DNA from: Oscillatoriales cyanobacterium PMM_0080
Lineage (GTDB): Bacteria > Cyanobacteriota > Cyanobacteriia > Cyanobacteriales > Microcoleaceae
Reading direction: 5' to 3'
Length of the DNA: 55,360 nucleotides
Assembly: GCA_949127775.1 (NCBI GenBank)
Contig: CASBQF010000137.1
Location: 1-55,360 of the forward strand
Positions 25,501 through 43,177 of this stretch are shown here, piece after piece (position 1 is the first letter of the stretch; every line of letters starts with the position of its first letter). Under the pieces are notes generated by a model, which saw nothing but the letters and a program-made list of their open reading frames with translations, made no database searches and was not told the DNA's origin. The translations under genes and the position numbers were made by a program.

Positions 25501-26953
25501 TAATCTGAGCAATTCTCAACCAGAATTAGCTGGTAAGCGAGTCTTAATTGTCGATGACAATGCTACCAACCGCCAAATTTTGACTCTGCAAGCTCAATCT
25601 TGGGGAATGGTGGCTAGGGCTTCAGCTTCGGCTCGTTTGGCTTTAGATTGGCTCGCTGCTAAAGAAGTGTTTGACTTGGCAGTTTTGGATATGCAAATGC
25701 CAGAAATAGACGGGTTGGCTTTAGCGGCCCAAATTCGCCAGTATCCAGATTGCCAAAATTTGCCGTTAGTGATGCTAACTTCGATCGGCAGACAAGAAAT
25801 TAACACCCCTACGATTGAGGTAGATTTTGCGGCTTTTTTGAACAAGCCGATCAAACAATCTCAGCTTTACAATGTCTTAATCAGTATTTTTGGGAAAGAG
25901 GTAACAGAAGTTAAAGTACAGCGCTCTCTTCTCGGGCCTTTCGTGCAAAGCATACCGATGCTGGCTTTAGAATTACCCCTGCGAATTTTGTTGGCTGACG
26001 ATCATTTGGTAAATCAGAAGGTGGCTTTGCAAATTTTGCAGCGGATGGGGTATCGCGCCGATGTGGCGGGAAACGGTATCGAAGTGCTCGAAGCTTTGCA
26101 CCGCCAGCCTTACGATGTTGTGCTGATGGATGTGCAAATGCCGGAAATGGACGGTTTGGAAGCTACCCGCCACATCCGCGAGCAATTTTGTGCAGATTTG
26201 ACTACCCAAAATTCCACTGGAGAGTCTGAAGTTTCGGCAACAGATCAGGAATCTAGTCATCGAAACTCCCCGATCGAAAATCCCAAATTGACTGAGGAAT
26301 CTAACAATCGAAAATCGAAAATCGAAAATCGAAAATCGACGAGGCCTTGGATTGTGGCGATGACGGCAAATGCGATGCAGGGCGATCGAGAAGAGTGCAT
26401 GGCTGCGGGTATGGACGACTATTTGAGCAAGCCGATCGCCATTGAGGAGTTAGTTCGAGCTTTGAGCGCCTGTCAACCTCGATCGAATGGGGCTGTTGCC
26501 CAAAATCCACAACAGACAATTCCCAATTCGCCCGCCTGCGTCGAGTCCGATCGATCGAATCTCGATCGGGCTTTGTCCGACAGCGGCGATTCCCTGAGTG
26601 CCAAGATTGTACAGTCTCTGCGAGAGGTAGAAGCTTTGGACGAGGTGATCGACATTTACCTCGAAACAGCTCCCGAACTGCTGCGAGGTATCTCTGTGGC
26701 TCTGTGCAGTGCCGATCCGTTGGCTTTGAGGCGATCGGCTCACTCGTTGAAATCGATTAGCGGTACTCTCGGTGCTTTTCGCTTGTTTGAGCTGTGCGGG
26801 GAACTCGAAATCATGGGCCGCATCGGAACAGACACGAACCAGGCTTTACCTGCGAATTCCTGCGGGCTTTTAGAACAGGTTGAGGCTGAGTATCAAAGAG
26901 TAGAAACGGCGTTGAAAATAGAACGCCTGTACAGCGATACAATTGACAGTTGA
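22556..26953 (+). CDS. CHASE4-HAMP-PAS-GAF hybrid histidine kinase with two receivers and Hpt
   Basis: 1465 residues, strong GAGGAGG ribosome site. Membrane helix 8-28, periplasmic CHASE4 domain (~35-250, with SAQDYAEWDDTYSFV), second membrane helix (~288-312), HAMP, PAS (~378-490, YRLMAENSTDMITRHN), GAF (~510-665), HisKA with H692 in ATMSHEIRTPMN, HATPase (NLLSNAVKF, DTGIGIPGD, GGTGLGLAISKRL), receiver 1 (D1045 in VLDMQMPE), receiver 2 (D1192 in LMDVQMPEMDG) and Hpt (H1396 in AHSLKSIS). It should sense an extracytoplasmic cue and pass phosphate along His-Asp-Asp-His to an unlinked regulator. Receiver 2 has a ~50-residue insertion (about 1210-1261) encoded partly by a heptamer tandem repeat. 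The last codons (DTIDS-stop) run into another heptamer repeat. Confidence 0.96.
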   Translation: MQLRKKTLLIIGAALIGLILVLYATASTILLHDFQNLETQYVRQDVARALDALDDDLSSLDTSAQDYAEWDDTYSFVDTRNQNFVKSNFVDSTFVYLRLNLLVLLDSSGKTIFAKGFDLKSKTEIPIPESLKQHLIETLLDSSTVDRPKTGVLTLPEVTLLIASKPIVNSNAIGPPRGTLILGRYLDNTEISLLSELTHLSVDFRLPSLDFKVGATNYSGPGAKAMARESQDLANLKLKISNLKSVEILVEPLSDSVVAGYALIRDIQGNLGLLLRVEVDRIIYRQGQATLNLFTLSTLAVGLVFSAIALLLLEKLVLARLADLSTSVSNIAANGDANLRVQMSGSDELTSLADTINRMLEALGNSQVERNESENRYRLMAENSTDMITRHNPEGVFVYASPASYALLGYEPSELIGRIPNDYFHPDDLENIARAHSKVLALPVTYTVSYRIRRKDGKYIWFETTSRTIRDPQTGAVQEIIGISRDISVRKQTEQELRESEAAIKALYQVTSAPRTDPQGRLSTFDLRLQELLAMGCRQLGLSVGILSRIQGDDYQIMAVECPDGSIAPSQIYDLEKTFCVATAMAKEPMYFESVRFAALCFDTPDPAFNIEAYMGIPVTVAGEVYGTLCFFSPTLLTEPFRVVDRELVKLMAQWVASELERQKTGVDLAKARDEALAATRAKSEFLATMSHEIRTPMNGVIGMTGLLLNTRLTREQCDFVETIRSSGDALLTLINDILDFSKIESGKLDLEEHPFDIRTCIEESIDLVAAKGAQKKLELGYLIDRAVPTTAIGDSARLRQILINLLSNAVKFTEAGEVVVSVTAKQISAPATKVKERLEINGEPLEIDQVYEIQFAVKDTGIGIPGDRMDRLFKSFSQVDSSTSRQYGGTGLGLAISKRLAEMMGGRMWVESMGSLAGNPPADFAAAVFDLESGASSEIAEKYDSGKSVLSSQPQSQNPKSVGSTFYFSTIVSGCNSSLPVNLSNSQPELAGKRVLIVDDNATNRQILTLQAQSWGMVARASASARLALDWLAAKEVFDLAVLDMQMPEIDGLALAAQIRQYPDCQNLPLVMLTSIGRQEINTPTIEVDFAAFLNKPIKQSQLYNVLISIFGKEVTEVKVQRSLLGPFVQSIPMLALELPLRILLADDHLVNQKVALQILQRMGYRADVAGNGIEVLEALHRQPYDVVLMDVQMPEMDGLEATRHIREQFCADLTTQNSTGESEVSATDQESSHRNSPIENPKLTEESNNRKSKIENRKSTRPWIVAMTANAMQGDREECMAAGMDDYLSKPIAIEELVRALSACQPRSNGAVAQNPQQTIPNSPACVESDRSNLDRALSDSGDSLSAKIVQSLREVEALDEVIDIYLETAPELLRGISVALCSADPLALRRSAHSLKSISGTLGAFRLFELCGELEIMGRIGTDTNQALPANSCGLLEQVEAEYQRVETALKIERLYSDTIDS
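26306..26339. repeat. In-frame heptamer tandem repeat (AATCGAA)n within a kinase gene
   Basis: Nearly five copies of AATCGAA encode the NRKSKIENRKS segment of the insertion in receiver 2. Because 7 is not a multiple of 3, copy-number change would shift the frame unless it changes by three units. Confidence 0.85.
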
Positions 26954-26970
26954 GAGTTGACAGTTGACAG
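26942..26970. repeat. Heptamer repeat overlapping the kinase stop codon
   Basis: ATTGACAGTTGAGAGTTGAC... Copies of ACAGTTG-type heptamers run through the stop codon (TGA 26951-26953), so the repeat supplies the C-terminal residues and stop. Confidence 0.85.
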
Positions 26971-27066
26971 CTACCTGGAAGGAAGAGGATTGGAGTAATG
27001 AATAGTCTGATTTTATTTTCTCGCCTTTAGGGCTTTGGGCTTTAAACCAATTCTTTCTGGTAATTT

Positions 27067-27110
27067 TTTAATCCCTAAAGATCGATCGACTTTTAGAGCA
27101 GCGACGCACC
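27067..27110. repeat. 44-bp direct repeat, copy 1
   Basis: TTTAATCCCTAAAGATCGAT...GCAGCGACGCACC; matches 28063-28106 at 43 of 44 positions (difference at 27095/28091). The two copies enclose the degenerate CRISPR unit and the exported-protein gene. Confidence 0.9.
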
Positions 27111-27182
27111 TCATAGAGCAGGTGCAAACATTGTTAGGCGTTCCTGAATTTAGATATGATTCACCTAGCGAAGGGAATCCCT

Positions 27183-27230
27183 GAAATTTAGAGTAGGGGC
27201 AATTCATGAATTGCCCCTACTCTAAATTTC
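27183..27230. repeat. 48-bp perfect palindrome
   Basis: The left half 27183-27206 (GAAATTTAGAGTAGGGGCAA...) is exactly complementary to 27207-27230, with no unpaired loop bases. It lies 33 bp upstream of the degenerate CRISPR leader. The core GTAGGGGCAATTCATGAATT-type sequence is related to dispersed cyanobacterial repeats. Confidence 0.95.
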
Positions 27231-27262
27231 GGATGCAAATCATACTCCGAATCAGCAACGCC

Positions 27263-27328
27263 CATTTTTAGGAGTCCTGGCAAACTGCATATAGACAGCT
27301 TCCGCTATATGAGGTGTATAGTGAAGTC
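27263..27328 (+). promoter_or_regulatory. Degenerate CRISPR leader (duplicate of the main-array leader)
   Basis: These 66 bases align without gaps to the last 66 bases of the main leader (40770-40835), about 52 identical by eye. Shared blocks are CATTTTT, GGAGTCCT, GCAAA, GACAGCTT and GGTGTATA. A -10-like TATAGT (27317-27322) sits at exactly the same distance (6 nt) from the first repeat as TATAAT does in the main leader. Confidence 0.85.
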
Positions 27329-27527
27329 GTTCCCACTCGCTGGGGAAACTAATTGAATTGAAACAGTGTCAACTTCAGCAGTGGAGCTGGCAGGATGAGC
27401 ATTTTTTTCATTTAACTCCGCACTCATTGGGGAAACTAATTGAATAAAAACGCTGCCAGCGAGCGAGGCTCGAATCAGCCGCAACCTGCTACTCCCCACT
27501 CGCTGAAAAAACTAATTGAATGGAAAA
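27329..27527 (+). CRISPR. Degenerate three-repeat satellite CRISPR array
   Basis: Three 36-nt units of the main-array repeat family: 27329-27364 (3 differences from consensus), 27416-27451 (5 differences), 27492-27527 (4 differences, including loss of the hairpin GGGG). Spacers are 51 nt (27365-27415) and 40 nt (27452-27491). The third unit no longer has a proper stem and ends in A instead of C, so processing of the distal part is doubtful. Too few and too decayed to be found by default array finders. Confidence 0.88.
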
Positions 27528-27533
27528 CACACC

Positions 27534-27983
27534 ATGAATAAACTACTTGTAGTCTCGATTATTGCGATCGGCTTGAATGCTGTCGCCAGCGATGTCGAAA
27601 AAACAGTTCAGCAAAAAAATGGCTGGGCGACGTATCAAAGCGAAATCGATCGCAAAGTCGGAGCGGTGAATCAAAAATGCGCCAGCAAAATCCGTGCGAG
27701 CTACGATAAATCAACATATCCAAGTTTCGATCCGATCCAAGATCGTACACAAGCCGCCTGCCAAGCAGCAGTCGGTACATTAGAGAACTTGTGCGTTTCT
27801 GACGCGGGCAAGCAGGCGGTGCAGAAAATAAAAACCAGCAGTTGCCAGTTTTCAACTTCTGGCACTGGTGTCGCGTTGAAGGAAGGAACCCTGATCATTC
27901 GCATCGATCCAAAAAACTCGAGTATCACTGGAAAAAAAGCAGGTTCCTATAGCTGGAAGAGCGCGCTCGAAGAGGTGCTTTGA
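27534..27983 (+). CDS. Small exported protein of unknown family
   Basis: 149 residues from ATG 27534; the in-frame TTG 27516 and the ATG overlapping the CRISPR repeat are less likely starts. The N-terminus MNKLLVVSIIAIGLNAVASD is a convincing signal peptide with cleavage after AVA or ASD. The mature part is polar, with four or five cysteines (C near KCASK, TQAACQ, ENLCV, SSCQF) that could form disulphides, and a C-terminal beta-like segment (TLIIRIDPKNSSI). I do not recognise the family. The coding start lies 6 nt after the third degenerate CRISPR repeat, so the only recognisable promoter upstream is the duplicated leader. It contains CGATCG-type octamers like its neighbours. Confidence 0.7.
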   Translation: MNKLLVVSIIAIGLNAVASDVEKTVQQKNGWATYQSEIDRKVGAVNQKCASKIRASYDKSTYPSFDPIQDRTQAACQAAVGTLENLCVSDAGKQAVQKIKTSSCQFSTSGTGVALKEGTLIIRIDPKNSSITGKKAGSYSWKSALEEVL

Positions 27984-28018: not shown

Positions 28019-28062
28019 AAGAGCGACCTCTATCTAGTCAGCCGTAGGGTGCGTCGCCATTC

Positions 28063-28106
28063 TTTAATCCCTAAAGATCGATCGACTTTTCGAGCAGCGA
28101 CGCACC
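28063..28106. repeat. 44-bp direct repeat, copy 2
   Basis: Second copy of the repeat at 27067-27110, ending 3 bp before the stop codon of the WYL gene. Here it is preceded by GTAGGGTGCGTCGC (28034-28047), inverted relative to its own end GCGACGCACC, so this copy lies inside a larger inverted repeat. Confidence 0.9.
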
Positions 28107-28109
28107 CGA

Positions 28110-29285
28110 TCAGCTATATCTCGCAACTAAATCTCTGGCTGCTTGTCGGTGTTTTTCCACCAAACTCGGCGGCGAAAGCACTTGCGCGTTATCCATATGC
28201 TTGTTCACCCACAGGCTGAATTCGTTGAGCGATCGATCGGGCAAATCGATCCAATAATCAACATACAGCAGTTGCCCATCACTATCTCGTCGCCCTTCCT
28301 TAATCTTTTGTCGCGGATGTCGTCGATCGCCCTCTAGAATAAATCCAACGACTTTCTCAAAAAATCGCACCTTCACTTTTTGCAACTTCAGCGTTCCCTC
28401 CAATTCAGCCTGCTGTTGCTCTGAATTGCCCAAGAACAGCCCCCAACCGTTTTTTAACAATTTGTGAGCTATTTTCAGACTTTGTAGCTGTGCAGCTAAA
28501 CCACGCGCTTCTACATCGATAATTTCGCAGTGTTCAGTAAAGCGATTTACCCGTTCTACGGTCAAGTGTCGGCTGTCGTAATCTTCACAAATCAGATACC
28601 AAGCGATATCGTGATAAATCAGTTGCAGAGGCCAGATTCGCCGGAAGCCGAGATGGCTTTTACCGTAATAGTTTTTTTCGCGGTAAAGTTCGATCGGCTG
28701 TCCGCGCACGATTGCTGTTTCTACAATATCCAATTTGTGGAAGAGGGTATGCTGATTGTTTTGGCGATCGATCATTTCGACAGGATCGGTGTAAATAATC
28801 GCCCGATTCAGGTGTTGGCGAACGGGATAAAACAATTCGCCTTTTAGTTCGATATCCAATCCGCGCAAGAGTTTTGTTAGTTTTTCGTAAATGCGACGCA
28901 CTTGGGGATTTCCCTGATTTTTTGCTTGGGATGCGAGTGCTTGGAATGCTACTTGCAATTCTTCGCGAGTCATTGCACCGGTGCCGAGATAGTAGCCCGA
29001 TCGATACATTCTTTTATCGAGGATTCCGTAGTGTCGCAAAGTTTCTAAGTCTTTGCGGATTGTGGGAGTTGCGGGATAGTTTTCGGGAAATTCGATGCTG
29101 AATTCGGCGGCTATTGTCTGTAATTGCGATCGAACTTCTAGCAAGGCATCGTGATATTTGCCGTCGGATGTTTCGGTATCGCTGTAGCCGATGCCGGGGT
29201 GGTTTACTAATGTGGCAATTAGGAGCATTATGCGATCGAACGTCAGTTTGTCGGCGTAGGGGTGAGGGGTTGGATTTTTTGCCAT
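28110..29285 (-). CDS. WYL-domain regulator of the CRISPR-Cas locus
   Basis: 391 residues. N-terminal region (~10-110, including TPTIRKDLETLRHYGILDKRMY) resembles a winged helix-turn-helix. The central WYL domain has HTLFHKLDIVETAIV... and IWPLQLIYHDIAWYLICEDY with the WYL triad, and VERVNRF; a WCX-like C-terminus follows. WYL proteins bind nucleic-acid ligands and often repress CRISPR-cas operons; a WYL protein regulates a CRISPR locus on a Synechocystis 6803 plasmid. Divergent orientation from cmr2 with a 191-bp shared control region fits this role. No truncation seen. Confidence 0.92.
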   Translation of the reverse strand: MAKNPTPHPYADKLTFDRIMLLIATLVNHPGIGYSDTETSDGKYHDALLEVRSQLQTIAAEFSIEFPENYPATPTIRKDLETLRHYGILDKRMYRSGYYLGTGAMTREELQVAFQALASQAKNQGNPQVRRIYEKLTKLLRGLDIELKGELFYPVRQHLNRAIIYTDPVEMIDRQNNQHTLFHKLDIVETAIVRGQPIELYREKNYYGKSHLGFRRIWPLQLIYHDIAWYLICEDYDSRHLTVERVNRFTEHCEIIDVEARGLAAQLQSLKIAHKLLKNGWGLFLGNSEQQQAELEGTLKLQKVKVRFFEKVVGFILEGDRRHPRQKIKEGRRDSDGQLLYVDYWIDLPDRSLNEFSLWVNKHMDNAQVLSPPSLVEKHRQAARDLVARYS

Positions 29286-29476: not shown

Positions 29477-32400
29477 ATGTCAACATTCTGGCAAGCCAAG
29501 ATTTGGGGATTGATGCACGATCCAGTCCTCAAGTCGCTGCATCGAGACATGAGTCGGGAGGGGAGATGGGAAGAGTTGGAGTGTATGGAGGGTTGGAAAT
29601 CTCCGAAAGAACCGGCAACTCATTCTCAAACCAATTTGAATGGAACTTGGCTAAAGTATGTAGGATTATGCGATTTAATCGCAGCGGCAAGCGATCGCAC
29701 TACTGTTGGCAGATTACCGCCCGAACACAGTGCCGTACTCTATGATAATCAAGGGTTACAGCTACGCCATTTGTTATCGGGAAAAGAACAAACTCTGATT
29801 TTGAAACAGTGGCACCACCGAATTATGGATCGCGATCGCGCGAAATTTTTAGATTGGGTTGAACAAACTGCACTCGATCCTATTAAAAAATGGAAAGATC
29901 CACAAAAAGTATTTTGGTGGTTGTGGCGATGCTATACACAGGCACTTTCTACCTCTTTGGGAGCAGGAACAGATGAGCCGTGCATTCATTTATTACCCGC
30001 AGAAACGCGCATTCCCGATGCTTCTTTATGGAGTCACGTTACTATGACTTCTGCTTTAGCTGGAGGATTAGCAGGGTATTCCGACAATCCAGAAGATTAT
30101 CCGAAAAAAGGCGATCGTAATTGGCCGCGATCGCGCCCTTATGTCGCTACCTTCAGTTTTACCCCCGTACAAGAATTAATCAAATCCAGCCGCAAAATGC
30201 GAGATTTTTGGGCTGGTTCCTGGCTGCTACACTATCTTTCTGCCAAAGTTTGTTGGGCGATCGCCCAGAAATACGGCCCCGATACTCTGCTTTACCCTTG
30301 TTTGTACGCCCAACCGCTAATTGACCATTGGCTATTACAAAAATATCCCGATTTTCAAGAGTGGATTAAACAGCCATCCGAGTCAGTTTGGGAACAACAA
30401 TTACTCACGGCAGGATTTCCCAATGTCTTAGTAATGATCTTGCCTAATAATGGTCAAGATCCAGAAGCAACCAGCGGCAATCCAGTCCGCGCAGCGATGG
30501 CTTATGCCGAAGCAACGCTTCACCAAGAATGGAAAAATATCGGGCAACAAGTATTAGCTTTCCTGCAAGCAGACAAAACAGAAGGTAGCAAACAGTGGCG
30601 CAATATCAAGTCCGAAAAGTGGGAGGGCTGGTTAAAAACACAGTGGCAGACATACTGGACAGCACTGCCGATCGGTTCTTCAGATGCTGAATTGCATCAT
30701 TCCCCCCGCAAAGAAACTGAGTACAAAGCATGGATTCAAAAGCAAAATGACTTTGCTAATCCGCATCCAAAATTATTTATTGAGCCGGAATACAATTTTC
30801 TGGAATCTGTATTTAGAAACATATCTCTTAAGTCGCAAGAAAACCTCTCTCAACCGGAAACCAGAGCTGAGTTTAGAGCAAAACAGCCTAATATGAATGC
30901 AGGCTCTTGGTGGGCGAGTATTTTTGACTCTCTGCGCTTCAGTCTCAATGCTGTTAAAAATTCTAGAACTTGGCAACTGCCAACAGCCTTTGGCCCCCGT
31001 TCCACGATTTCAGGAATAGGATCAGCCGTGCATCTCACCAACAATTCTCAACAAAATGATTGGGTGACGGAGGAACAAACTGGGAAATTTTGGTCTTATG
31101 ATATGGGGTTATTCGATGGTATCGAAGAACTTAACGCTACCGAAGTCATTAAGCGCTGTTTGCACAAAATTTTGCTCAAAGAACTTTTTCCAGGAGAATC
31201 TGAAAACCAGCGGCATAAAATACCTGTTCTTTATCCCGATTTGAGTTCTGGTGTAGCTGGCTGGCTGCGAACAATGGAAGCAGTAGGAAATCAGTCAGCT
31301 ATTGATTACTTTTTGGCATCTTGTCAAAAAGTAATTGATGATTTTAGGTGGACAAATGACAGTGGATATGCACCAGCTAATTTACCTTGGGGCATTCCTT
31401 GGATCGCCAAGAATCACAGTCAGTGGCATAATCCGCGCTTGCTGAATGCTGGCTGGTTGATTGATGACTATCACCCAAAAAGCGATATTCCTGACCAACC
31501 ATTCACTCGCACTGAACAACAAAAAGCTAAACAAGCAGAGTTGAGAGAACTGCGAGAAGCCATTTCTAAATTATTTGCTCCTGGCAATAATCCGACGGAT
31601 TGGTACGTCTTAGCTGCTGGCGATGGCGACGGTATGGGTGAGTGGCTAAAAGGTACAAAATTAGAAGCATATAAGCATTATCTTCCTGATGCTTTGCACC
31701 GTAAGATAAATCAAATGCCGGAGCAGTTTCGGGAACCATTTCAAGAGTTTCTGGAAGTGCAAAAGCGCATGGGCCCAGCTACTCACAGCGCTTTGAGTCG
31801 CGCTTTGTTAGATTTCTCGAATCAGTTAGTGCCTTACCTCACAGAACAGCGTTATGCGGGACGTTTGATTTACGGCGGTGGTGATGACGTTTTGGCTTAT
31901 ACCAATCTCTGGGAATGGGATAAATGGCTGTGGGATATTCGCCAGTGTTTCCGAGGTGAAGAAGATCCACAACAGGAGTTTGACAATGCTGGGGATTATT
32001 GGCGCTGGAAGAATGGCGATTTACCAAATAATTTATCTGAACGTCCCTTATTTACAATGGGACATAAGGCGACTATTAGTTTTGGGATTGTCATTGCTCA
32101 TCATTCAGTACCTTTGGCGATCGCACTTGAAAACATCTGGGAAGCTGAGGCGGAAGCTAAGGAACATGAATATCAAAATAGCTGCCGCTTGAAAGACAAA
32201 AAGGATTGCTATGCCAAAAAAGATGCCGTGCAAGTCCGAGTTTTGTACGGTAACGGCAACATTTTAAAAGCAACCTGTAAATTTGAGGTGTTTCGTCAGT
32301 GGCAATTACTGACGGCTCTCCCGGATTTAGACAGCGCTATTTTCGAGCAAGCTGCGACTGTTTGGAGCCAGCATCCCGCACCGATATATGGGGCGATCGC

Positions 32401-32590
32401 ACCTTGGAGCCAAGCTTTTTGTTCGCGGCGAGAGCAATTGGTTGATGATAGCGATCGAGAATTTCAGCAAAAGTTATCTGAGTTTCTGCAACAGTTGTGG
32501 AAAACAACGGTAGAGGATAAGTTAACTCAAGAAATTTATAACTGGTTGAAATTAGCAGCTTTTGTCATCCGCAAACGTCAAATAAATTGA
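29477..32590 (+). CDS. cmr2: Cmr2/Cas10, large subunit of type III-B effector
   Basis: 1037 residues. The N-terminus has an HD dipeptide in the Cas10 position (GLMHDPVLK, H14-D15) and the Cmr2 segment DLIAAASDR. The first palm part follows at PYVATFSFTPVQELIKSSRKMRDFW (in two pieces here). The second palm holds AAGDGDGMGEWLKG and GGGDD (G801-D804 in RLIYGGGDDVLAYTN). GGDD is the active site that makes cyclic oligoadenylates from ATP when target RNA is bound; the HD domain can cut single-stranded DNA. Both look preserved, though full HD coordination cannot be confirmed by eye. It is the first gene of an operon continuing 11 nt downstream into cmr3. Confidence 0.96.
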   Translation: MSTFWQAKIWGLMHDPVLKSLHRDMSREGRWEELECMEGWKSPKEPATHSQTNLNGTWLKYVGLCDLIAAASDRTTVGRLPPEHSAVLYDNQGLQLRHLLSGKEQTLILKQWHHRIMDRDRAKFLDWVEQTALDPIKKWKDPQKVFWWLWRCYTQALSTSLGAGTDEPCIHLLPAETRIPDASLWSHVTMTSALAGGLAGYSDNPEDYPKKGDRNWPRSRPYVATFSFTPVQELIKSSRKMRDFWAGSWLLHYLSAKVCWAIAQKYGPDTLLYPCLYAQPLIDHWLLQKYPDFQEWIKQPSESVWEQQLLTAGFPNVLVMILPNNGQDPEATSGNPVRAAMAYAEATLHQEWKNIGQQVLAFLQADKTEGSKQWRNIKSEKWEGWLKTQWQTYWTALPIGSSDAELHHSPRKETEYKAWIQKQNDFANPHPKLFIEPEYNFLESVFRNISLKSQENLSQPETRAEFRAKQPNMNAGSWWASIFDSLRFSLNAVKNSRTWQLPTAFGPRSTISGIGSAVHLTNNSQQNDWVTEEQTGKFWSYDMGLFDGIEELNATEVIKRCLHKILLKELFPGESENQRHKIPVLYPDLSSGVAGWLRTMEAVGNQSAIDYFLASCQKVIDDFRWTNDSGYAPANLPWGIPWIAKNHSQWHNPRLLNAGWLIDDYHPKSDIPDQPFTRTEQQKAKQAELRELREAISKLFAPGNNPTDWYVLAAGDGDGMGEWLKGTKLEAYKHYLPDALHRKINQMPEQFREPFQEFLEVQKRMGPATHSALSRALLDFSNQLVPYLTEQRYAGRLIYGGGDDVLAYTNLWEWDKWLWDIRQCFRGEEDPQQEFDNAGDYWRWKNGDLPNNLSERPLFTMGHKATISFGIVIAHHSVPLAIALENIWEAEAEAKEHEYQNSCRLKDKKDCYAKKDAVQVRVLYGNGNILKATCKFEVFRQWQLLTALPDLDSAIFEQAATVWSQHPAPIYGAIAPWSQAFCSRREQLVDDSDREFQQKLSEFLQQLWKTTVEDKLTQEIYNWLKLAAFVIRKRQIN

Positions 32591-32601
32591 GGTAATGTTG
32601 A

Positions 32602-34612
<2,011 letters not shown>

Positions 34613-34615
34613 ATT

Positions 34616-35110
34616 ATGACATTTGATCCTAGAACGATCGCAACACCTGTTTATAAGGCTTTGTCACAGTTGCGATCGCCTTATGACCAGGCATTGAATC
34701 AAACACAGTCGGTTTCAGAAAAGAAGGTTTACTACGACCATATGAAAGAGCAAAAAAATCAAGCGGTAGAATTGTACACTTATCTCTCTACTTGGGGCTT
34801 GATGCGCTTAAGAGCCGAGGAAATGGCTTTAGATAAATCCAAACCAGGAGAGCCACCACTTAGCTTGAAAAAGAAGGCTGAAACCAGTCAATATGGGAAA
34901 CTAGAGGTTATTCAATATTATTTTCAATGCTTAGAAAAGCTGGCAGATTCTCAGACAATTAAAAATTTGGGAGGTAAACAGGGATTGGAAGTTCTGCATA
35001 AATTGGGTACGGATGACTATCTCGGCTTAACAGGTTTGGGATTAGCATTAGCGCAAGAATTTAGTTTTTGGGCAACTGCTGTTTATCACGATATTTCTGG
35101 AGAAGATTAA
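34616..35110 (+). CDS. cmr5: Cmr5, Cas11-type small subunit
   Basis: 164 residues, all-helical, with the Cmr5 pattern (ALSQLRSPYDQALNQTQSVSEKKVYYDHMKEQ..., then AVELYTYLSTWGLMRLRAEE, and C-terminal EVLHKLGTDDYLGLTGLGLALAQEFSFWATAVYHD). Cmr5 forms the inner filament facing the target strand. GAAGGAG ribosome site overlaps the end of cmr4; the fusion gene starts 2 nt after the stop. Slightly longer than the ~120-150 residues usual for the family. Confidence 0.93.
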   Translation: MTFDPRTIATPVYKALSQLRSPYDQALNQTQSVSEKKVYYDHMKEQKNQAVELYTYLSTWGLMRLRAEEMALDKSKPGEPPLSLKKKAETSQYGKLEVIQYYFQCLEKLADSQTIKNLGGKQGLEVLHKLGTDDYLGLTGLGLALAQEFSFWATAVYHDISGED

Positions 35111-35112
35111 AT

Positions 35113-37113
35113 ATGTCGCCTAATCCTTGGGAACGCCCTAAACAATCGGGACAAGCAAAGCCTAAAGTATCGGGAACACCTAACCCTGCTACTCAAAAAG
35201 CTGGTACTAAACCAAAGAAAATCATTCCTCCCATTTCCGGCGGTGGCGGTGGTGCTGGTGCTGGTGGATGCGCCCCTAATACGCCCCCCTCTTCACCTTG
35301 GCTAGATCCTGAAAATGAACCGCAGCCTGATGCAACTGCCAGTTTTGTAGAGTATTTGCGGTGGATGCGATCGCCCGATCGCTCCCACAAAGACGCTACC
35401 AAAGTGCAAATTTTGCAAATGGCTGAGGAATCGGCCGATTATGGCGATCGGCTAACTCAACTCACCAACCGCACTAAGCTCATTGCAGGAGAAAAAAAAT
35501 ATTTTTCCGTTCAATGTCCTTGGCGAATTCGCACGGGCGGACATCGCGGGCCGGAAAGCATCTTACTCCCTGCTTTTGATGCCTTGGGAATGCCTTACAT
35601 CCCGTCTTCTACCTTGCGGGGAGTTGCGAGAAATCAAGCCATTCGCGAAATCATGGCTAAGGACAAAGTAGATTGGAAAGAAGCTGAAGAACGGGTAGCG
35701 CCTTGGTTTGGTTCTCTCAAGGCAAAAGGGGGCGATCGGGCTGGCAAAGTCGTCTTTCTCGATGCCTATCCCTCGCCCATTCAAAAAGGGGGAGGGCTAG
35801 CAGTAGACATGGCAAATAATATCTGGACTTGGGAGGGTAATTCACTTAAATATAGCCCCAATCCTAACCCGTTTTTTTCGCTCAAAGAAGCTACTTTTGT
35901 AATTGGGTTGCGCCTTGTCAGTAGTTGCAATGATGCTGATGTATTGCAGCAAGTTAGGAAGTGGTTAATTAAAGGGTTGCAATCAGGGATTGGCTCGCAA
36001 GTCAATACTGGTTATGGAGAAATGTTAGTCGCAGGTGAAGGGCGGCCGACTAATGAATTTTTCCGAGTTGAGTTTAGCTTAGAAGGGCAGTTAATTCACG
36101 GGCGGCAAAAGTTTACCGGGTGGAATTGGAATTATGACAAAAATGAATGGCAAACGCGGGGTCAAGCTGAGGCTGAAGTCCGTCCCGTTGCTTTTAAGTC
36201 GATGCTGCGATATTGGTTCCGCGCTTTTGCTTTAGGAGTTTTTCCCGTATCGGACGTGCAGGTATGGGAAGCTAATCTTTTTGGCGCTATTAATCCCAAC
36301 AGAGCAAGGGGATGGGTACGGTTTGCAATGTTAGAAGGTCAGGTAACTCAGCGGGAACCTCAAGGAAAAAATGACTATTGTGGCGAACAACAGGGCATTT
36401 TAACTTTGAGTTATTCACCAGCAGTACCAGCAAATAAGCAAACTGCCATTGATCAACTTTTTAAGAACCTGACTTGGATGATGTTTCATCTCGGAGGAAT
36501 CGGTCAAGGTGCGAGAAGACCTTGCTATTCTCGTCAAAATCGAGATTATCCCAGGCCACCTTGGTATCGCGGCTCAGATTTAAGGAATGAAGATAAGGAT
36601 GACGCTTTCTGGGAATTACCCAAGGATATTAGTTCATTTCAAAAGTTATTTCAGCAGCGGTTAGAAGGATTTTATACAGCATTAGCCACACTGACGGGGA
36701 ATCAAATTAACTATCTAACTCCTAGAGCGATCGGTGTAGTTCGTGGGGATACTTGGACTGAAGCGGTTGATGCTCATTGTCGGATTATTGTCTGTTCTGG
36801 CGATGAAGATTTTGGCAAAGCTTATGCTTTGGCAGTGCTGCATAGTGAAGACCTAAAAAAACCCGTAAAAGACAGGGACGGAAATTCCATCATAGAGCAA
36901 GGTAGAGTTAAAAAAATATACGATTCCAATTTGTGTGGCAAAGTTAGCAAAGTTAGCCGGGATGTGAAACCTTCTCCCGTTTGGATTGCCGATTTAGGTG
37001 ATTATCAAGTTGTCACAGTCTTTGGTGCTACCCAAAACCCGCGCCAAAATTATTTAGCAACTTTGCGGGAACAAACTACTAAGCAAAACTTCGTTCAACT
37101 TTGGCCTTTTTGA
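35113..37113 (+). CDS. Cmr6-Cmr1 natural fusion protein
   Basis: 666 residues from ATG 35113; the longer frame from 35068 lies inside cmr5. Residues ~1-75 are a Pro/Gly/Lys-rich disordered tail. Cmr6 part (~85-310): RTGGHRGPESILLP, MPYIPSSTLRGVAR, GKVVFLDAYP and GIGSQVNTGYGEM. A second RAMP begins near 314 (FFRVEFSLEGQLIHG) and has Cmr1 hallmarks: EVRPVAFKSMLRYWFRAF, WEANLFG and GIGQGARRP. The operon has no other cmr1, so this protein supplies both the 3' cap subunits of the Cmr complex in one chain, which would fix their ratio at 1:1. In canonical III-B loci cmr1 and cmr6 are separate genes. Confidence 0.88.
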   Translation: MSPNPWERPKQSGQAKPKVSGTPNPATQKAGTKPKKIIPPISGGGGGAGAGGCAPNTPPSSPWLDPENEPQPDATASFVEYLRWMRSPDRSHKDATKVQILQMAEESADYGDRLTQLTNRTKLIAGEKKYFSVQCPWRIRTGGHRGPESILLPAFDALGMPYIPSSTLRGVARNQAIREIMAKDKVDWKEAEERVAPWFGSLKAKGGDRAGKVVFLDAYPSPIQKGGGLAVDMANNIWTWEGNSLKYSPNPNPFFSLKEATFVIGLRLVSSCNDADVLQQVRKWLIKGLQSGIGSQVNTGYGEMLVAGEGRPTNEFFRVEFSLEGQLIHGRQKFTGWNWNYDKNEWQTRGQAEAEVRPVAFKSMLRYWFRAFALGVFPVSDVQVWEANLFGAINPNRARGWVRFAMLEGQVTQREPQGKNDYCGEQQGILTLSYSPAVPANKQTAIDQLFKNLTWMMFHLGGIGQGARRPCYSRQNRDYPRPPWYRGSDLRNEDKDDAFWELPKDISSFQKLFQQRLEGFYTALATLTGNQINYLTPRAIGVVRGDTWTEAVDAHCRIIVCSGDEDFGKAYALAVLHSEDLKKPVKDRDGNSIIEQGRVKKIYDSNLCGKVSKVSRDVKPSPVWIADLGDYQVVTVFGATQNPRQNYLATLREQTTKQNFVQLWPF

Positions 37114-37198
37114 AAATGCGATCGCACTTCTTGTCTTTCTTGTAAAACAGGCATCTTGCCAACTTCTATCACCCCTAATTTTACCCCAAAAAATCACC

Positions 37199-38746
37199 AT
37201 GCCAGAAACTAATCGCGTCAGCACTCTCATCATCACCGTCGGCACGCGCCAAATTGGATGGAACTGCAAAGATGGTGTCATTCGCTCCTTCGGTGCTGAC
37301 GGCAATACCAGCTACCCACCTCATGTTAACGAACTGTATCAAGAAATAGAAATCCCTCGTGGGAACTATGAAGAAAAAGATAAAACCTATCCTTGGAGTG
37401 CTAAGGATTTAGGTGAGCGGTACTACGATCGCTGCATTTACGAACTTAGTTATGATTTTAGCAAAGTTGAACTATTGCTAGACTATCAAATTATTGAAGC
37501 CGCTGTCAAACAAGGACTCAAACATATCATATTGTGGGGAACTGACCAGCCAGAAAAAGTTTCCTGGTTCTACCGCCGCCTCGATACAATCTGGCTGGCT
37601 AAACTCATGGAAGGTAAAATCAAATCTATCTGGCCAAATCTCAAGGTTGACGTTCACACTCCCAAAATTGAAGCTAATGACAATAGCGCTATTCGGGAAG
37701 AATTGGAACAGTTAATTTTGCGAGAAGCCCTTGAGTTTTTCTCTCCCACAGGTATTGACGAACAGTTTGTTTTGTGGATTCAAAATAAAGGTTGCACGCC
37801 TGCGATCGCCTCTGGTGTCGAAATCTGTGCTGCTGCTTTAGTCCGTCAATGTCAAGTCTTTAATGCTACTCCCGATGACCCGGAATCATTTTTTGCGCCT
37901 CACGACAGCGGCGCTCAATTTGCGTGTCATTCTCCCGGCTACAAACTAATTCCAATGGGCGAATATTTCTGGCCACTGGAACGGGTGCGGGTGATTTCTG
38001 CTTGGAAGCGGGGCGATTTTTCCGAAGCCCAGATTTGGCTGAAACTGCATCAAAGTCGCTACAGTCTTATCTATAAGTTAGCGGGAATCTTGGCTCTTTC
38101 GGCTAACTGGGAAAATGACAAATTTATCACAAAAATAGGAGAGTGGGTGCACTCCCGCGATGTGCTGAAATTTGTAGGAGAAAACCAGGTTAAAGCCTGG
38201 GAAGAACAGCTATATCGGCTCAAAAACACTCAACAAACTCAAGCTTGGGAATCGAGTTTCCTGATTGAGTTGCCCTTGTACCGCCAAAACTACACTGGCG
38301 CTTTTATCCAGTTTGTCCAAACCTTAGAAAGGTTGCTCTACCTGCACAGCAAATCAGGTAATTGGCTCGGCAAACGCTATATTACTGTTCCGGATCATTT
38401 GACTTATTTAGGCGATCGATATCAACCGGGATTTAGTGGGTTAATTGACGGCTGGTGTCAATCTAAAAAGTTTGATAAAAATCATAAATGGTACAAATTG
38501 CTGCATCGACTTCGGGAAAAACGGAATCAAGTAATTCACTCAGGCGAATCAGTAACTTTGGCTAATATTAGATCGATTTGGTCGGATGGAGGTTTGTTTC
38601 CTGTCAAGCATCCAGAGGAACCGGAAGTGATTAGAGACTTGATGGTAGAAGTGCTGAAAGAAATTTGCGATCGCACTTGGGAAATACCTCAAAAAACCTT
38701 CCTCTGTTCCCTCTACGACTGGGGATTAAAAACGCTCAACGATTAA
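37199..38746 (+). CDS. Candidate CARF-HEPN ribonuclease (Csm6/Csx1-like)
   Basis: 515 residues. The N-terminus (STLIITVGTRQIGW..., then KHIILWGTDQPE) is a Rossmann-type strand-loop as in CARF sensor domains. The C-terminal region has a HEPN-type motif R442-x4-H447 (EKRNQVIHSGES) followed by a final helix. CARF-HEPN enzymes are switched on by cyclic oligoadenylate made by Cas10 and then degrade RNA indiscriminately. Position 85 bp after the Cmr6-Cmr1 gene, and an intact Cas10 GGDD, fit that partnership. The exact family (Csm6, Csx1 or another CARF class) cannot be set from sequence alone. The middle region 250-430 is not assigned. Confidence 0.78.
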   Translation: MPETNRVSTLIITVGTRQIGWNCKDGVIRSFGADGNTSYPPHVNELYQEIEIPRGNYEEKDKTYPWSAKDLGERYYDRCIYELSYDFSKVELLLDYQIIEAAVKQGLKHIILWGTDQPEKVSWFYRRLDTIWLAKLMEGKIKSIWPNLKVDVHTPKIEANDNSAIREELEQLILREALEFFSPTGIDEQFVLWIQNKGCTPAIASGVEICAAALVRQCQVFNATPDDPESFFAPHDSGAQFACHSPGYKLIPMGEYFWPLERVRVISAWKRGDFSEAQIWLKLHQSRYSLIYKLAGILALSANWENDKFITKIGEWVHSRDVLKFVGENQVKAWEEQLYRLKNTQQTQAWESSFLIELPLYRQNYTGAFIQFVQTLERLLYLHSKSGNWLGKRYITVPDHLTYLGDRYQPGFSGLIDGWCQSKKFDKNHKWYKLLHRLREKRNQVIHSGESVTLANIRSIWSDGGLFPVKHPEEPEVIRDLMVEVLKEICDRTWEIPQKTFLCSLYDWGLKTLND

Positions 38747-38853
38747 TCAGCATCGTCACAAAATTAGTCTCATCGATAGATTGCACCTGAAATCTGTAAC
38801 AACGCAGCATTGCCGCATCTCTACCTGTATTTGCCTCATCAACCCATAAAACT

Positions 38854-39138
38854 ATGTACATCACATCTCGCGCATCCACAATCCGCAACTTCTCCCTAGC
38901 CGCCGTCAATGGCACGATCACTCTGATCATCCTCCTAATCGCACCCCTCGGATTAGCCGCCGTAATTTCTAACACATTTCTAGTAACAGTAGCTACTTTT
39001 TTTGCATCCGCCATCGCTGACCAAATCACTCGCTACCTGCAACCTTCGCGTGCTCAATCAATCGGAAATTCCTTGGATTCTGGCGCGGAATCGTCGCAGA
39101 TTATTGAGGGCGATTCCCAAGGTTTAGAACGAAAATAA
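38854..39138 (+). CDS. Small CRISPR-associated membrane protein, Csx18-like
   Basis: 94 residues. MYITSRASTIRNFSLAAVNG precedes a hydrophobic region with two probable membrane helices (TITLIILLIAPLGLAAVIS and TFLVTVATFFASAIAD) and a polar, acidic tail. This resembles the Csx18 family of short membrane proteins found beside cyanobacterial type III loci; I recall the family but cannot verify the match here. Function of Csx18 is not established; a membrane-linked accessory to type III signalling is an inference. It lies ~105 bp after the CARF-HEPN gene, same strand, and before cas1. Confidence 0.65.
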   Translation: MYITSRASTIRNFSLAAVNGTITLIILLIAPLGLAAVISNTFLVTVATFFASAIADQITRYLQPSRAQSIGNSLDSGAESSQIIEGDSQGLERK

Positions 39139-39162
39139 TTGGGTTTTTCTTGACCCAAATTC

Positions 39163-39336
39163 CGTAGGGGCGGGTTCACCAATAACATTTAATACTCACA
39201 AATGATCTCAATAAACCCGCCCCCACACAACAGATAACCTACTGGCAAAAATGTATTTTGGAATTGTTTGTTGGGCTGGGGCGGGTTTAGGAATTCTTGC
39301 TCTGCGGCGATTATTGTTGGTGAACCCGCCCCTACG
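39163..39336. repeat. Inverted-repeat element between csx18-like gene and cas1
   Basis: CGTAGGGGCGGGTTCACCAA begins at 39163 and its exact inverse ends at 39336, with two further internal AAACCCGCCCC copies. It is a 174-bp palindromic element of the GTAGGGGCGGGTT family common in this window. No target duplication was found. It separates the effector/ancillary genes from the adaptation genes. Confidence 0.75.
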
Positions 39337-39370
39337 ATGATTATGAAAAAAAGCGGGTTTTTTATTGCTT

Positions 39371-40363
39371 ATGCGTACTATCTATGTTTCGCAACCGGGT
39401 TGTTATGTTTCTTTGCAACTAGAAATGCTGGTTATCAAAAAAGGGGAGGTGATTCTCGGTGAAATTCAGCTTCCTTTGCTCGAACAAGTTCTGATTTTTG
39501 GTCAATCTCAAGTGACTACTCAAGCAATTAGAACTTGTCTGTGGCGGAATATTCCCATTGCCTATCTTTCGCGGATGGGTTACTGTTACGGGCGGATTCT
39601 GCCTATCGAGCGGGGCTACCGGCAACTGTCTCGCTATCAGCAACAGTTGTGTTTTCCTGATCGCCTGCAAGTGGCACAGCGCATTGTGCAAGTTAAGCTG
39701 AAAAATAGCCGGGTGATCCTGATGCGACAGCAGCGCCGACAAGCTTCTGAGGTGATTGCTTTTGCGATTCAGTGTTTGGAACATTTAATCAAAAAGGCGG
39801 GTGAGGCTGAAACTATTGAGCGGTTGATGGGGTTGGAAGGTGCTGGGGCGGCTCAGTATTTCTCGGCTTTTGAAGAGTGTTTGAATAATCGAGATTTTGT
39901 GTTTGTGAATAGGTCGCGCCGCCCTCCGGGTAATCCGGTGAATGCGATGCTGAGTTTTGGGTATCAGGTTTTGTGGAATCATTTGTTGAGTTTGATCGAG
40001 TTGCAAGGTTTAGATCCTTATTCGGCTTGTTTGCATCAGGGGACCGATCGTCATGCGGCTTTGGCTTCGGATTTGATTGAGGAGTTTCGCGCGCCAATTG
40101 TTGATACTTTGGTTTTTTATCTTGTTAATAATGGCATGATGAAAGCTGACCAAGATTTTGCTTTCCGCAATAGCGGCTGTTTTCTCAATGATTCTGGGCG
40201 ACAGAAATTTTTGACTGCATTTTTGCGGCGGATGGAAGAGAATTTTACTAATAATTCTGGGGATAGCCAACCTAAATGGGATTTGCTCAATCAGCAGGTG
40301 AAAGCTTTCAAAAAGTTTGTGTACAATCCTCTTGAGCTTTATCAACCTTATCAAATTCGATAA
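39371..40363 (+). CDS. cas1: Cas1, spacer-integration nuclease
   Basis: 330 residues from ATG 39371 (MRTIYVSQPGCYV); the frame's upstream TTG 39365 is not needed. The metal-binding residues of Cas1 are present: E156 in LEGAGAAQYF, H222 in CLHQGTDRHA and D234/E237 in SDLIEEFRAP. Cas1 integrates new spacers at the leader end as a complex with Cas2. Not fused to a reverse transcriptase or Cas6, unlike some type III Cas1 proteins. cas2 follows after 3 nt. Confidence 0.97.
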   Translation: MRTIYVSQPGCYVSLQLEMLVIKKGEVILGEIQLPLLEQVLIFGQSQVTTQAIRTCLWRNIPIAYLSRMGYCYGRILPIERGYRQLSRYQQQLCFPDRLQVAQRIVQVKLKNSRVILMRQQRRQASEVIAFAIQCLEHLIKKAGEAETIERLMGLEGAGAAQYFSAFEECLNNRDFVFVNRSRRPPGNPVNAMLSFGYQVLWNHLLSLIELQGLDPYSACLHQGTDRHAALASDLIEEFRAPIVDTLVFYLVNNGMMKADQDFAFRNSGCFLNDSGRQKFLTAFLRRMEENFTNNSGDSQPKWDLLNQQVKAFKKFVYNPLELYQPYQIR

Positions 40364-40366
40364 AGT

Positions 40367-40648
40367 ATGCTGCTTTATATCGTTGTCTACGATATTCCGG
40401 TTGACAAGCGCAGGAAAAAGGTGCATGACTTGCTGAAAGGTTACGGCAAGTGGGTGCAATATTCTACGTTTGAGTGTGTTTTACCAACTGCCAAGTTTAC
40501 AGAACTTCAGCGGCGACTCGGAAAGTTAATCAATTTAGATGAGGACAGTATTAGGTTCTATCCTGTGTCGGGGCATACTTTGGGTAATGTCCAGACTTGG
40601 GGTGTGGGGCCACCTGTCACGGAGTTGCCGGGATCGGTGATTATCTAA
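40367..40648 (+). CDS. cas2: Cas2, adaptation subunit
   Basis: 93 residues with the ferredoxin-like start LLYIVVYDIPVDKRRKKVHDLL (in pieces: YIVVYDIP and KRRKKVHDLL) and VQYSTFECVLP, then GHTLGNVQTWG near the C-terminus. Bridges Cas1 dimers during spacer integration. It starts 3 nt after cas1 and ends ~190 bp before the array, the usual cas1-cas2-leader-array order. Confidence 0.97.
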   Translation: MLLYIVVYDIPVDKRRKKVHDLLKGYGKWVQYSTFECVLPTAKFTELQRRLGKLINLDEDSIRFYPVSGHTLGNVQTWGVGPPVTELPGSVII

Positions 40649-40835
40649 TATCACTCGCGAGGGCTGGAAGAAATGGCTGTGATGGCGGAAGTTCGTTGGA
40701 GCCTTCGATATGCTGTCTTGTAAGGGTTTCAGGCATTAGTAAGATAAGTTGGGAGGGTGTTTGTACGGACATTTTTGGGAGTCCTCGCAAATGGCCTCTG
40801 GACAGCTTGCGCTGTATGGGGTGTATAATGGAGGT
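40649..40835 (+). promoter_or_regulatory. CRISPR leader and promoter of the main array
   Basis: 187 bp between cas2 and the first repeat. TATAAT at 40824-40829 ends 6 nt before repeat 1, so transcription should begin at or just inside the first repeat. TGGACA (about 40799-40804) is a weak -35 candidate with a long spacer. The last 66 bases are conserved in the satellite locus at 27263-27328, which marks them as functionally important for integration or transcription. Confidence 0.85.
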
Positions 40836-43177
40836 CTCCCCACTCGCTGGGGAAACTAATTGAATGGAAACCGCACGTGGGGCGAAAGGAGATAAAGATG
40901 GATCGAAACTCCCCACTCGCTGGGGAAACTAATTGAATGGAAACGTTAAAGACGATCGCTCCGTAGCACCCCTTAACGCACTCACCAACTCCCCACTCGC
41001 TGGGGAAACTAATTGAATGGAAACACTCATCAATTGCATCCAACCAGCACATACCTTAACTCCCCACTCGCTGGGGAAACTAATTGAATGGAAACTTGAC
41101 ATCATCAAACCACAACCCGATCGTCGGTAGCTGGTAAACTCCCCACTCGCTGGGGAAACTAATTGAATGGAAACCGGTAAATTGCTCGTTTTCGTAATGC
41201 GGTTGACTCCCCACTCGCTGGGGAAACTAATTGAATGGAAACAAGGTAAAGTTTTCGCACAGCTTGATTCCAATCGCTCCCCACTCGCTGGGGAAACTAA
41301 TTGAATGGAAACTCCCAAATCTCACCATCAACAATTTTGGTTGAGTCAACGGGACTCCCCACTCGCTGGGGAAACTAATTGAATGGAAACTATGCTTCCC
41401 AGTTGGGTCTGGGTAACAAATGTTCTCTCCCCACTCGCTGGGGAAACTAATTGAATGGAAACTTTACACAAAGCTATGCTCCTGATTAGTGGCCCTCGTG
41501 TGTGGATTTAATGGACTCCCCACTCGCTGGGGAAACTAATTGAATGGAAACCTTTCAAAGCAAACCCATAAACCTGTTCCATCTTTTGTTCTCCCCACTC
41601 GCTGGGGAAACTAATTGAATGGAAACCCAGCTTTACCCGTAGATTACCCACCAATTCCTTCACCTCCCCACTCGCTGGGGAAACTAATTGAATGGAAACT
41701 TACTAATGATGAGATTACCGGAAACCTGTGTAATCTCCCCACTCGCTGGGGAAACTAATTGAATGGAAACACTTGTAAATAAGAGGTTTTCCGAATCATT
41801 CTAAAATCTCCCCACTCGCTGGGGAAACTAATTGAATGGAAACCCGGCATCCGTGGGATCGACCTTTATAACCTCACAACTCTCCCCACTCGCTGGGGAA
41901 ACTAATTGAATGGAAACGAAACTACCCGATCGCTTGTATGATTTTTTCTATAAAGACTCCCCACTCGCTGGGGAAACTAATTGAATGGAAACTCTCGATT
42001 TTTGCGCTGAATCAGCAGTAGTCCTTCTCCCCACTCGCTGGGGAAACTAATTGAATGGAAACAGGTTTAGTTGGTTCCTTTCTCTTTTTGATGAACTCAG
42101 ACTCCCCACTCGCTGGGGAAACTAATTGAATGGAAACGATACTTTACTGCCCATCCGTCCTCGTAAATAGTGTTTATCCTCCCCACTCGCTGGGGAAACT
42201 AATTGAATGGAAACTTTGCTCTAGCTCTAAAACTTTCTGACTTTGGGCATTATCCTCCCCACTCGCTGGGGAAACTAATTGAATGGAAACTAGAAATGTA
42301 CTTTAGTGATAAAACTACAACAAATTTATTCTCCCCACTCGCTGGGGAAACTAATTGAATGGAAACTTTCAATTCATTAGGCTTGATCCATTTTTTAACA
42401 ACTCCCCACTCGCTGGGGAAACTAATTGAATGGAAACAGGATATATCCCGAACTCTTATATGGTAGAATCCTCCCCACTCGCTGGGGAAACTAATTGAAT
42501 GGAAACTCGTCAGCGATGACGGTATAGTAAGAATGGCTTGTTTCTACTCCCCACTCGCTGGGGAAACTAATTGAATGGAAACAATGCGCCGACACCCACC
42601 CATCCCAAGAAGTTGGCTCCCCACTCGCTGGGGAAACTAATTGAATGGAAACTTCTTTCGCCAGTTCATAGATTGAATGTAGGTGACCTCCCCACTCGCT
42701 GGGGAAACTAATTGAATGGAAACGCGCGATCGTTTTTAGCGTCGTGGATGAAGGCGATTTCCCTCCCCACTCGCTGGGGAAACTAATTGAATGGAAACGG
42801 AATAATTGTCTCTCCGTTGGGTGTAGGCTGTGACACTCCTCACTCGCTGGGGAAACTAATTGAATGGAAACTTACATAGGTTTGTCACCATCCCCGTGAT
42901 GCACACAATTCGACCTTTCTCCCCACTCGCTGGGGAAACTAATTGAATGGAAACGGAAAATTCATGGCGTAGATTTCAGCGGCTTTTGGGTTGTTTCTCC
43001 CCACTCGCTGGGGAAACTAATTGAATGGAAACTCTGGAATGAGAAACTCGACAAAATCAGGATAGTTACTCCCCACTCGCTGGGGAAACTAATTGAATGG
43101 AAACTGACAATCGAACTCAATATCCTTCATACTGTTACCTGCTCCCCACTCGCTGGGGAAACTAATTGAATGGAAAC
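40836..43177 (+). CRISPR. Main CRISPR array, 32 repeats and 31 spacers
   Basis: 36-nt repeats, read on the + strand as CTCCCCACTCGCTGGGGAAA followed by CTAATTGAATGGAAAC. All are identical except repeat 28 (42836-42871, C5 to T). TCCCC/GGGGA forms a 5-bp hairpin with a 7-nt loop. The last eight bases ATGGAAAC match the 5' crRNA tag type of III systems, supporting + strand transcription from the leader. Spacers are 32-53 nt: most 34-44, with spacer 9 (41463-41515, 53 nt) and spacer 28 (42872-42918, 47 nt) unusually long. No duplicate spacer was noticed. Variable spacer lengths are usual for type III arrays. Confidence 0.99.

What the first reader, a model, noticed from the sequence alone, without database searches (positions are those of the whole stretch)
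27263..27527. Second, decayed CRISPR locus that kept its own leader
Three diverged copies of the main 36-nt repeat lie 13 kb upstream of the main array on the same strand. They are preceded by a 66-nt segment aligning gap-free with the main leader, with the -10 element at the same 6-nt distance. Leader-proximal repeat decay and a lost hairpin in the third unit suggest a once-active array that has been frozen. It may still be transcribed and give one or two crRNAs.
Basis: seen in the sequence. Interest (0 to 1): 0.72.

Follow-up and report, generated by a model that had tools for sequence, protein, structure and literature searches.

The report
Decayed mini-CRISPR leading into a gene
A short, worn-out copy of a bacterial immune-memory locus still has a recognisable start signal and now sits directly in front of a small unknown gene; it looks like a genomic fossil, possibly reused as that gene's switch.

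Summary
In detail: three diverged repeats (3, 5 and 4 mismatches of 36) follow a 66-nt segment matching the main leader gap-free at 52 of 66, with a -10-like hexamer 6 nt before repeat 1. It is not merely a 'second locus'; two further arrays in the genome have this leader. All repeats are decayed, and the leader has more changes at conserved columns (6 of 39) than any of 31 others (0-5). Best reading: an acquisition-dead mini-array, one of several short arrays in this Microcoleus-like genus, whose leader promoter may still drive a transcript into the ORF. No spacer target was found, which is uninformative because the main array matched no phage record either. A guide-RNA regulator is unsupported. 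Promoter reuse is open; array-gene adjacency is not significant (P 0.098).

The parts
27063..27110 (+). left copy of a 48-bp direct repeat flanking the insert
   Evidence: 46 of 48 identical to 28059-28106; G010 has one copy at the empty site
27137..27262 (.). MITE-like dispersed repeat with imperfect 25-bp terminal inverted repeats (18 of 25), abutting the leader
   Evidence: dozens of places in the genome, the long matches at about 79-95% identity
27263..27328 (+). mini-leader; -35-like TAGACA and -10-like TATAGT 6 nt before repeat 1 (promoter function inferred)
   Evidence: 52 of 66 to the main leader; column test
27329..27364 (+). degenerate repeat 1 (3 mismatches)
27365..27415 (+). spacer 1, 51 nt, no target found
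27416..27451 (+). degenerate repeat 2 (5 mismatches)
27452..27491 (+). spacer 2, 40 nt, no target found
27492..27527 (+). degenerate repeat 3 (4 mismatches), hairpin lost; supplies an in-frame TAA and a GGA about 9 nt before the ATG
27534..27983 (+). orphan ORF, 149 aa, N-terminus resembles a signal peptide (recalled criteria), ATG 6 nt after repeat 3; a TTG start inside repeat 3 (27516) is also possible
   Evidence: coding score 0.138 vs -0.02 in the other two forward frames, but 0.109 in one reverse frame; no homologue
28059..28106 (+). right copy of the 48-bp direct repeat
28110..29285 (-). CARF-WYL regulator divergent from the cas operon
29477..40648 (+). type III-B cas operon: cas10b, cmr3, cmr4, cmr5, cmr6/cmr1-like, CARF-HEPN, cas1, cas2
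40770..43177 (+). main leader and 32-repeat array

Best explanation
This is a defunct, leader-bearing CRISPR mini-array of the same family as the main III-B array. It is carried in a roughly 1-kb, repeat-flanked segment that was found in this genome only. It no longer acquires spacers (inferred). Its leader promoter most likely still starts transcription at repeat 1 (inferred), and the transcript runs through repeats and spacers into the orphan ORF (inferred), so the array is now in effect a 205-nt 5' untranslated region. Host RNase E or a Cas6-type enzyme may cut at repeats 1 and 2 (inferred). Any crRNA made would be a by-product, not a maintained immune memory.
For: Leader and repeats are far above chance. 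All three repeats are diverged, whereas 31 of the 32 main-array repeats are exact. The mini-leader differs at 6 of 39 highly conserved columns against 0-5 (mean 1.2) in 31 other leaders, one of them in the conserved CCTCG block; the -10 spacing is kept, and its -10 variant TATAGT also occurs in two other leaders (L090, L098). The segment is absent at the orthologous site of G010, G027, G019 and G012, and 0 of 15 relatives' WYL loci examined has a repeat or leader within the DNA held. The ORF begins 6 nt after repeat 3, and the scan shows no plus-strand terminator-like or promoter-like site between leader and ATG. The forward-frame coding score lies within the range of 19 window genes. Short leader-bearing arrays are frequent in the genus.
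Against: No transcript data. The orphan ORF has no homologue, so selection on it cannot be tested, and one reverse-strand frame scores almost as high (0.109 vs 0.138). Array-to-gene adjacency is not significant across independent arrays: 2 of 31, expected 0.53, P 0.098, and this array suggested the test. The promoter scan flags neither the mini nor the main leader, so its silence elsewhere is weak evidence. The margin in the leader column test is small (6 vs a maximum of 5; rank p 0.03). The 48-bp repeats and the MITE leave some room for misassembly.
Confidence: 0.5

Rival explanations
1. Pure fossil: the same dead array, but silent or transcribed to no effect, its closeness to the ORF accidental.
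For: Decay in every repeat and in conserved leader columns; adjacency not significant over independent arrays; insert seen in one genome only; one reverse frame of the ORF scores nearly as high as the forward one.
Against: No other promoter-like site found for an ORF whose score is in the range of genes; -10 spacing and leader core preserved.
Confidence: 0.35
2. Guide-RNA regulator like CreA/CreR: degenerate repeats make a dedicated crRNA that represses a chromosomal promoter by partial pairing.
For: Degenerate repeats are typical of such ectopic repeats (PMC9458426, passages; PMC8501985, abstract). The locus neighbours the cas operon. Spacer 2 has an 11-of-13 match in the cas/WYL divergent promoter region, P about 0.02 (60 shuffles), one of 20 comparisons.
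Against: One of 20 comparisons at P 0.02 is expected by chance. The effector here is type III-B, whereas CreTA uses the type I effector Cascade (PMC8501985, PMC9458426). The hairpin of repeat 3 is lost. The locus was not found in the relatives examined.
Confidence: 0.08
3. Origin by delivery: the mini-array came with a virus or plasmid (as in cyanophage N-1) and was left behind with a cargo ORF. This concerns origin and is compatible with the first two readings.
For: Insert with flanking direct repeats and an orphan ORF. One IMG/VR contig (L179) carries phage tail genes and a 4-repeat array with the same repeat. Cyanophage N-1 carries a host-type array (PMC4916379, passages).
Against: No match to the ORF in plasmids, phages or (by peptide-pattern scan) viral contigs. 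No match of the mini-locus in the 50,697 phage records. The MITE beside it is a dispersed element of the host genomes. The leader of L179 matches the main leader at only 23 of 66 without gaps.
Confidence: 0.15
4. Assembly artefact joining an array fragment at repeats.
For: Segment bounded by a 48-bp direct repeat and a multi-copy MITE.
Against: The repeats and leader are not identical to any other array found in the genome, the best other long MITE match is 95% identical, and both flanks are collinear in four relatives.
Confidence: 0.05

Closest known systems
RliB-CRISPR of Listeria (PMC3886909, abstract and section list seen)
   Same: array apart from cas genes, possible processing by a host RNase
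   Different: RliB is reported as ubiquitous at one locus in Listeria, with spacers sharing sequence with phages; this one was seen in one genome, with no spacer match
CreTA / degenerate ectopic repeats (PMC8501985, abstract; PMC9458426, abstract and passages)
   Same: minimal array with diverged repeats near a small gene
   Different: no toxin RNA or target promoter shown; effector here is III-B, not type I; three repeats and a leader core
Solitary repeat units / Racr (PMC10651486, abstract and passages)
   Same: repeat(s) just downstream of a promoter
   Different: three repeats with two spacers on a chromosomal contig, with a leader; not viral
Short leader-bearing arrays of the same genus (G017:C59, G008:C21, G023:C62, G011:C13, G018:C10, G006:C32)
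   Same: same leader and repeat family, 1-3 repeats; in three genomes a SnoaL-like gene starts 19-23 nt after the last repeat
   Different: at another locus (near a tryptophan-synthase-like and, in some, a recR-like gene; names recalled); most of their repeats are less decayed (0-4 mismatches)
III-Bv system of Synechocystis, crRNA cut by RNase E (Behler 2018, seen only as a reference title in PMC9676260)
   Same: cyanobacterial III-B setting
   Different: processing enzyme not tested here

Membership tests
CRISPR array | three or more directly repeated units with unique spacers of similar length | tested here: met
   3 units, spacers 51 and 40 nt; main-array spacers run 32-53
CRISPR array | near-identical repeats | tested here: not met
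   3, 5 and 4 mismatches to the family consensus; hence filed as a degenerate array, not a working one
CRISPR array | leader shared with cognate arrays | tested here: met
   52 of 66 gap-free; ends upstream at the MITE. Leader-only seeded searches missed the link
CRISPR array | spacers derived from mobile elements | tested here: inconclusive
   no convincing match; the main array also matched nothing in the phage set, so absence is uninformative
CRISPR array | matured crRNAs | not testable with these tools
   no RNA data
CreTA | spacer partly complementary to an adjacent toxin promoter | tested here: inconclusive
   best match to the leader/MITE region is 9 nt of spacer 2, P about 0.05, in the MITE end; none to the ORF region beyond chance
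CreTA | type I effector in the locus | tested here: not met
   adjacent effector is III-B; type I elsewhere in the genome was not searched
CreR-type cas regulator (name recalled; its words occur in papers listed, none read) | spacer match in the cas promoter | tested here: inconclusive
   11-of-13 match, P about 0.02 in one of 20 comparisons
Solitary repeat unit / Racr | single repeat in a viral genome | tested here: not met
   three repeats, contig with host genes; no match of the mini-locus in phage records

The most novel reading that the evidence does not exclude
CRISPR leaders of dead mini-arrays are captured as promoters by small neighbouring genes. The repeats become a 5' untranslated region that CRISPR-processing nucleases can cut, tying the gene's expression to CRISPR activity. 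It would have happened at least twice in this genus: this ORF, and the SnoaL-like gene of G017, G008 and G023.
Probability: 0.2. Interest if true: 0.6.

Novelty: new member of a known kind. Interest (0 to 1): 0.3.

Why it matters
If leaders of dead CRISPR loci are reused as promoters and their repeats as processable 5' regions, array decay would be a source of new gene regulation. As it stands, it mainly shows that this genus scatters short leader-bearing arrays over its genomes and that one of them has decayed beside a MITE and an orphan gene.

Tried and rejected
Spacer targets: blastn in phages gave only hits with E of 1 or more. In the own genome the best non-repeat match is 20 nt at 95%, E 0.108, over the T-rich end of spacer 1. 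Exact 18- and 19-mers in viral contigs gave 4, 1 and 0 contigs; none extends beyond the seed, and about one or two such hits are expected by chance (own estimate). Rejected as targets. Only three pieces were scanned; the first 18 nt of spacer 2 were not.

Homologues of the orphan ORF: Pfam, NCBIfam, PHROGs, PADLOC; 58 relatives besides the own genome; 290 genomes of the order besides the own (drawn from a larger group); plasmids, phages; and peptide-pattern scans of genome and viral contigs, which reach close relatives only. None found. AlphaFold without an alignment gave pLDDT 39.6 and was not used.

Adjacency test: 4 of 33 arrays have an ORF of at least 100 aa starting within 25 nt of the last repeat (naive P 0.0023), but three are orthologues; for 2 of 31 independent arrays P is 0.098, so I do not claim enrichment. 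Background: 871 of 51,026 sampled intergenic positions. Left out of the 33: L082, L089, L099, L109 (array runs to or near the end of the contig or fetched piece) and L114 (degenerate). Six repeat remnants without a full leader were listed but not counted; one of them (L039) has a 74-aa ORF at 7 nt. Some of the 33 have little downstream DNA (L080 142 nt, L091 284 nt). Among the 55 loci, only the same orthologues recur within 25 nt.

RNA fold of the 5' region: z -1.07, not unusual.

Leader column test: 31 leaders formed the consensus. Left out: the mini-leader under test; L107 and L110 (different offset); L113, L114 and L115 (degenerate or partial); L088 (6 extra nt before its repeat, never entered). 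L093, whose leader is not directly followed by a repeat, was kept.

WYL loci: 15 (L128-L142) of the 24 non-own matches were examined; the nine others (L143-L151, fragments or distant matches) were not. The DNA held beyond the gene is about 1.5 kb at most, about 600 nt in L134 and about 200 nt in L138.

Full report
Setting. The window is contig C137 of a 6.36-Mb genome. A type III-B locus runs from 29477 to 40648 (Cas10b, Cmr3-5, a Cmr6/Cmr1-like protein, a CARF-HEPN nuclease, Cas1, Cas2), with a divergent CARF-WYL regulator at 28110-29285. A 32-repeat array follows at 40836-43177.

Observation. Three diverged repeats and a 66-nt gap-free leader match (52 of 66) are present as described and far above chance. 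The genome contains two further arrays with the same leader, on C160 (13 repeats seen) and C286 (10). Repeat 1 has 3 mismatches, repeat 2 has 5, repeat 3 has 4. Repeat 3 has lost the stem; repeats 1 and 2 keep weakened stems. Negative result: leader-only 73-nt genome searches failed to pair the mini and main leaders; the mini-leader query found only G011, G015 and G018 besides itself (4 of 29 genomes).

Left boundary. Upstream of 27263 similarity to the main leader drops to background (5 of 20 in the first block). The reason is a 126-bp element at 27137-27262 with imperfect terminal inverted repeats, present at dozens of places in this genome (59 matches, with palindromic reverse matches counted apart). 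It ends at 27262 and the leader begins at 27263. Several other leaders (main, L084, L086, L087, L089) continue upstream with TGTTTGTAC, which is missing here.

Insert. Of 15 relatives' loci carrying the WYL gene (L128-L142), none has a repeat (13 mismatches or fewer) or leader (32 or fewer) in the DNA held, which in L138 reaches only about 200 nt past the gene. Four of them (G010, G027, G019, G012) show both flanks and lack the segment between about 26942-27110 and 28059-28127. A 48-bp direct repeat (27063-27110 / 28059-28106, 46 of 48) bounds it, and G010 has a single copy that looks like a join of the left and right versions. So either this genome gained the segment, or G010 lost it by recombination between the copies; I cannot tell which.

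State of the leader. Across 31 leaders, 39 of 66 columns are at least 90% conserved. Each of those leaders departs at 0-5 of them in a leave-one-out test; the mini-leader departs at 6. Its -35-like and -10-like hexamers (TAGACA, TATAGT) occur as variants in other leaders, and the 6-nt spacing is kept. This fits loss of acquisition with a surviving promoter, but the margin is small (rank p 0.03).

The ORF. 27534-27983 (149 aa) begins 6 nt after repeat 3, which also holds an in-frame TAA and a GGA about 9 nt before the ATG. Its codon score is 0.138, against about -0.02 in the other two forward frames and 0.065-0.223 for 19 other window genes (10 of which trained the score); one reverse-strand frame reaches 0.109, so the strand is not settled by this test alone. 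No homologue was found in the collections searched. The plus-strand scan shows no terminator-like site and no promoter-like site between leader and ATG; that scan also misses the main leader, so it is weak evidence.

Genus context. The main leader was found at 35 places in 19 of 29 genus genomes (the mini-leader is not among them). Where complete repeats were held beside a leader, arrays have 1 to 67 repeats. Six genomes have 1-3-repeat arrays at one shared locus. In three of these, two with nearly the same spacer (one difference), a SnoaL-like gene starts 19-23 nt after the last repeat; its 80%-identical relative in G007 has no repeat in the roughly 300 upstream bases shown. In G008 and G023 the WYL gene is a fragment or interrupted and no Cas10 of the window's lineage was found; that search does not see the other Cas10b lineage, so absence of a III-B system is not shown. 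This resembles the window's layout but is not statistically convincing.

Odds. On re-checking I lowered the best explanation from 0.6 to 0.5, because one reverse frame scores almost like the ORF, and the pure-fossil rival from 0.45 to 0.35, because the two exclude each other and should not sum above one. Both share the dead-array reading.

Verdict. A decayed mini-array with a leader: real, ordinary in kind, with an untested chance that the leader now serves as a gene's promoter. Literature: judged from the titles and abstract openings listed in searches (the longer lists were capped), no paper on a CRISPR leader used as promoter of a downstream protein gene appeared.

Noticed in passing
window 27137-27262: 126-bp MITE-like element with a 48-nt perfect internal palindrome; dozens of places in this genome and many in G023, G010 and G027.
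   Followed up: partly
L084, L087, L088 (G017:C59, G008:C21, G023:C62): Leader plus 1-2 repeats immediately upstream of a SnoaL-like gene; nearly the same spacer in two genomes.
   Followed up: partly
L092, L098, L102 with L084, L087, L088: Six genomes carry a 1-3-repeat leader-bearing array at one shared chromosomal site near a tryptophan-synthase-like gene (name recalled); no cas genes were noticed in the roughly 10 kb looked at (compared with window ORFs only).
   Followed up: partly
L128, L130, L133, L136, L139: The same CARF-WYL regulator stands beside a different Cas10b lineage (best PADLOC match PDLC02051) than in the window (PDLC02052): effector modules seem swapped while the regulator stays.
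   Followed up: partly
L115 4964-5600 (reverse strand): A 479-nt non-repetitive stretch with a 105-aa ORF lies between two repeats: a gene apparently inserted in, or captured by, an array.
   Followed up: no
L179 11165-11419: IMG/VR contig with phage tail genes carries a 4-repeat array with the same repeat.
   Followed up: partly
L038 and L036: Leader fragment plus a single repeat conserved in two genomes (G001, G014) some 60 nt upstream of an ATG.
   Followed up: no
L039 1502-1616: Two degenerate repeats ending 7 nt before the ATG of a 74-aa ORF in G007.
   Followed up: no
L086, second spacer: Spacer contains, by eye, a terminator-like hairpin with a T-run, followed by a degenerate last repeat.
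   Followed up: no
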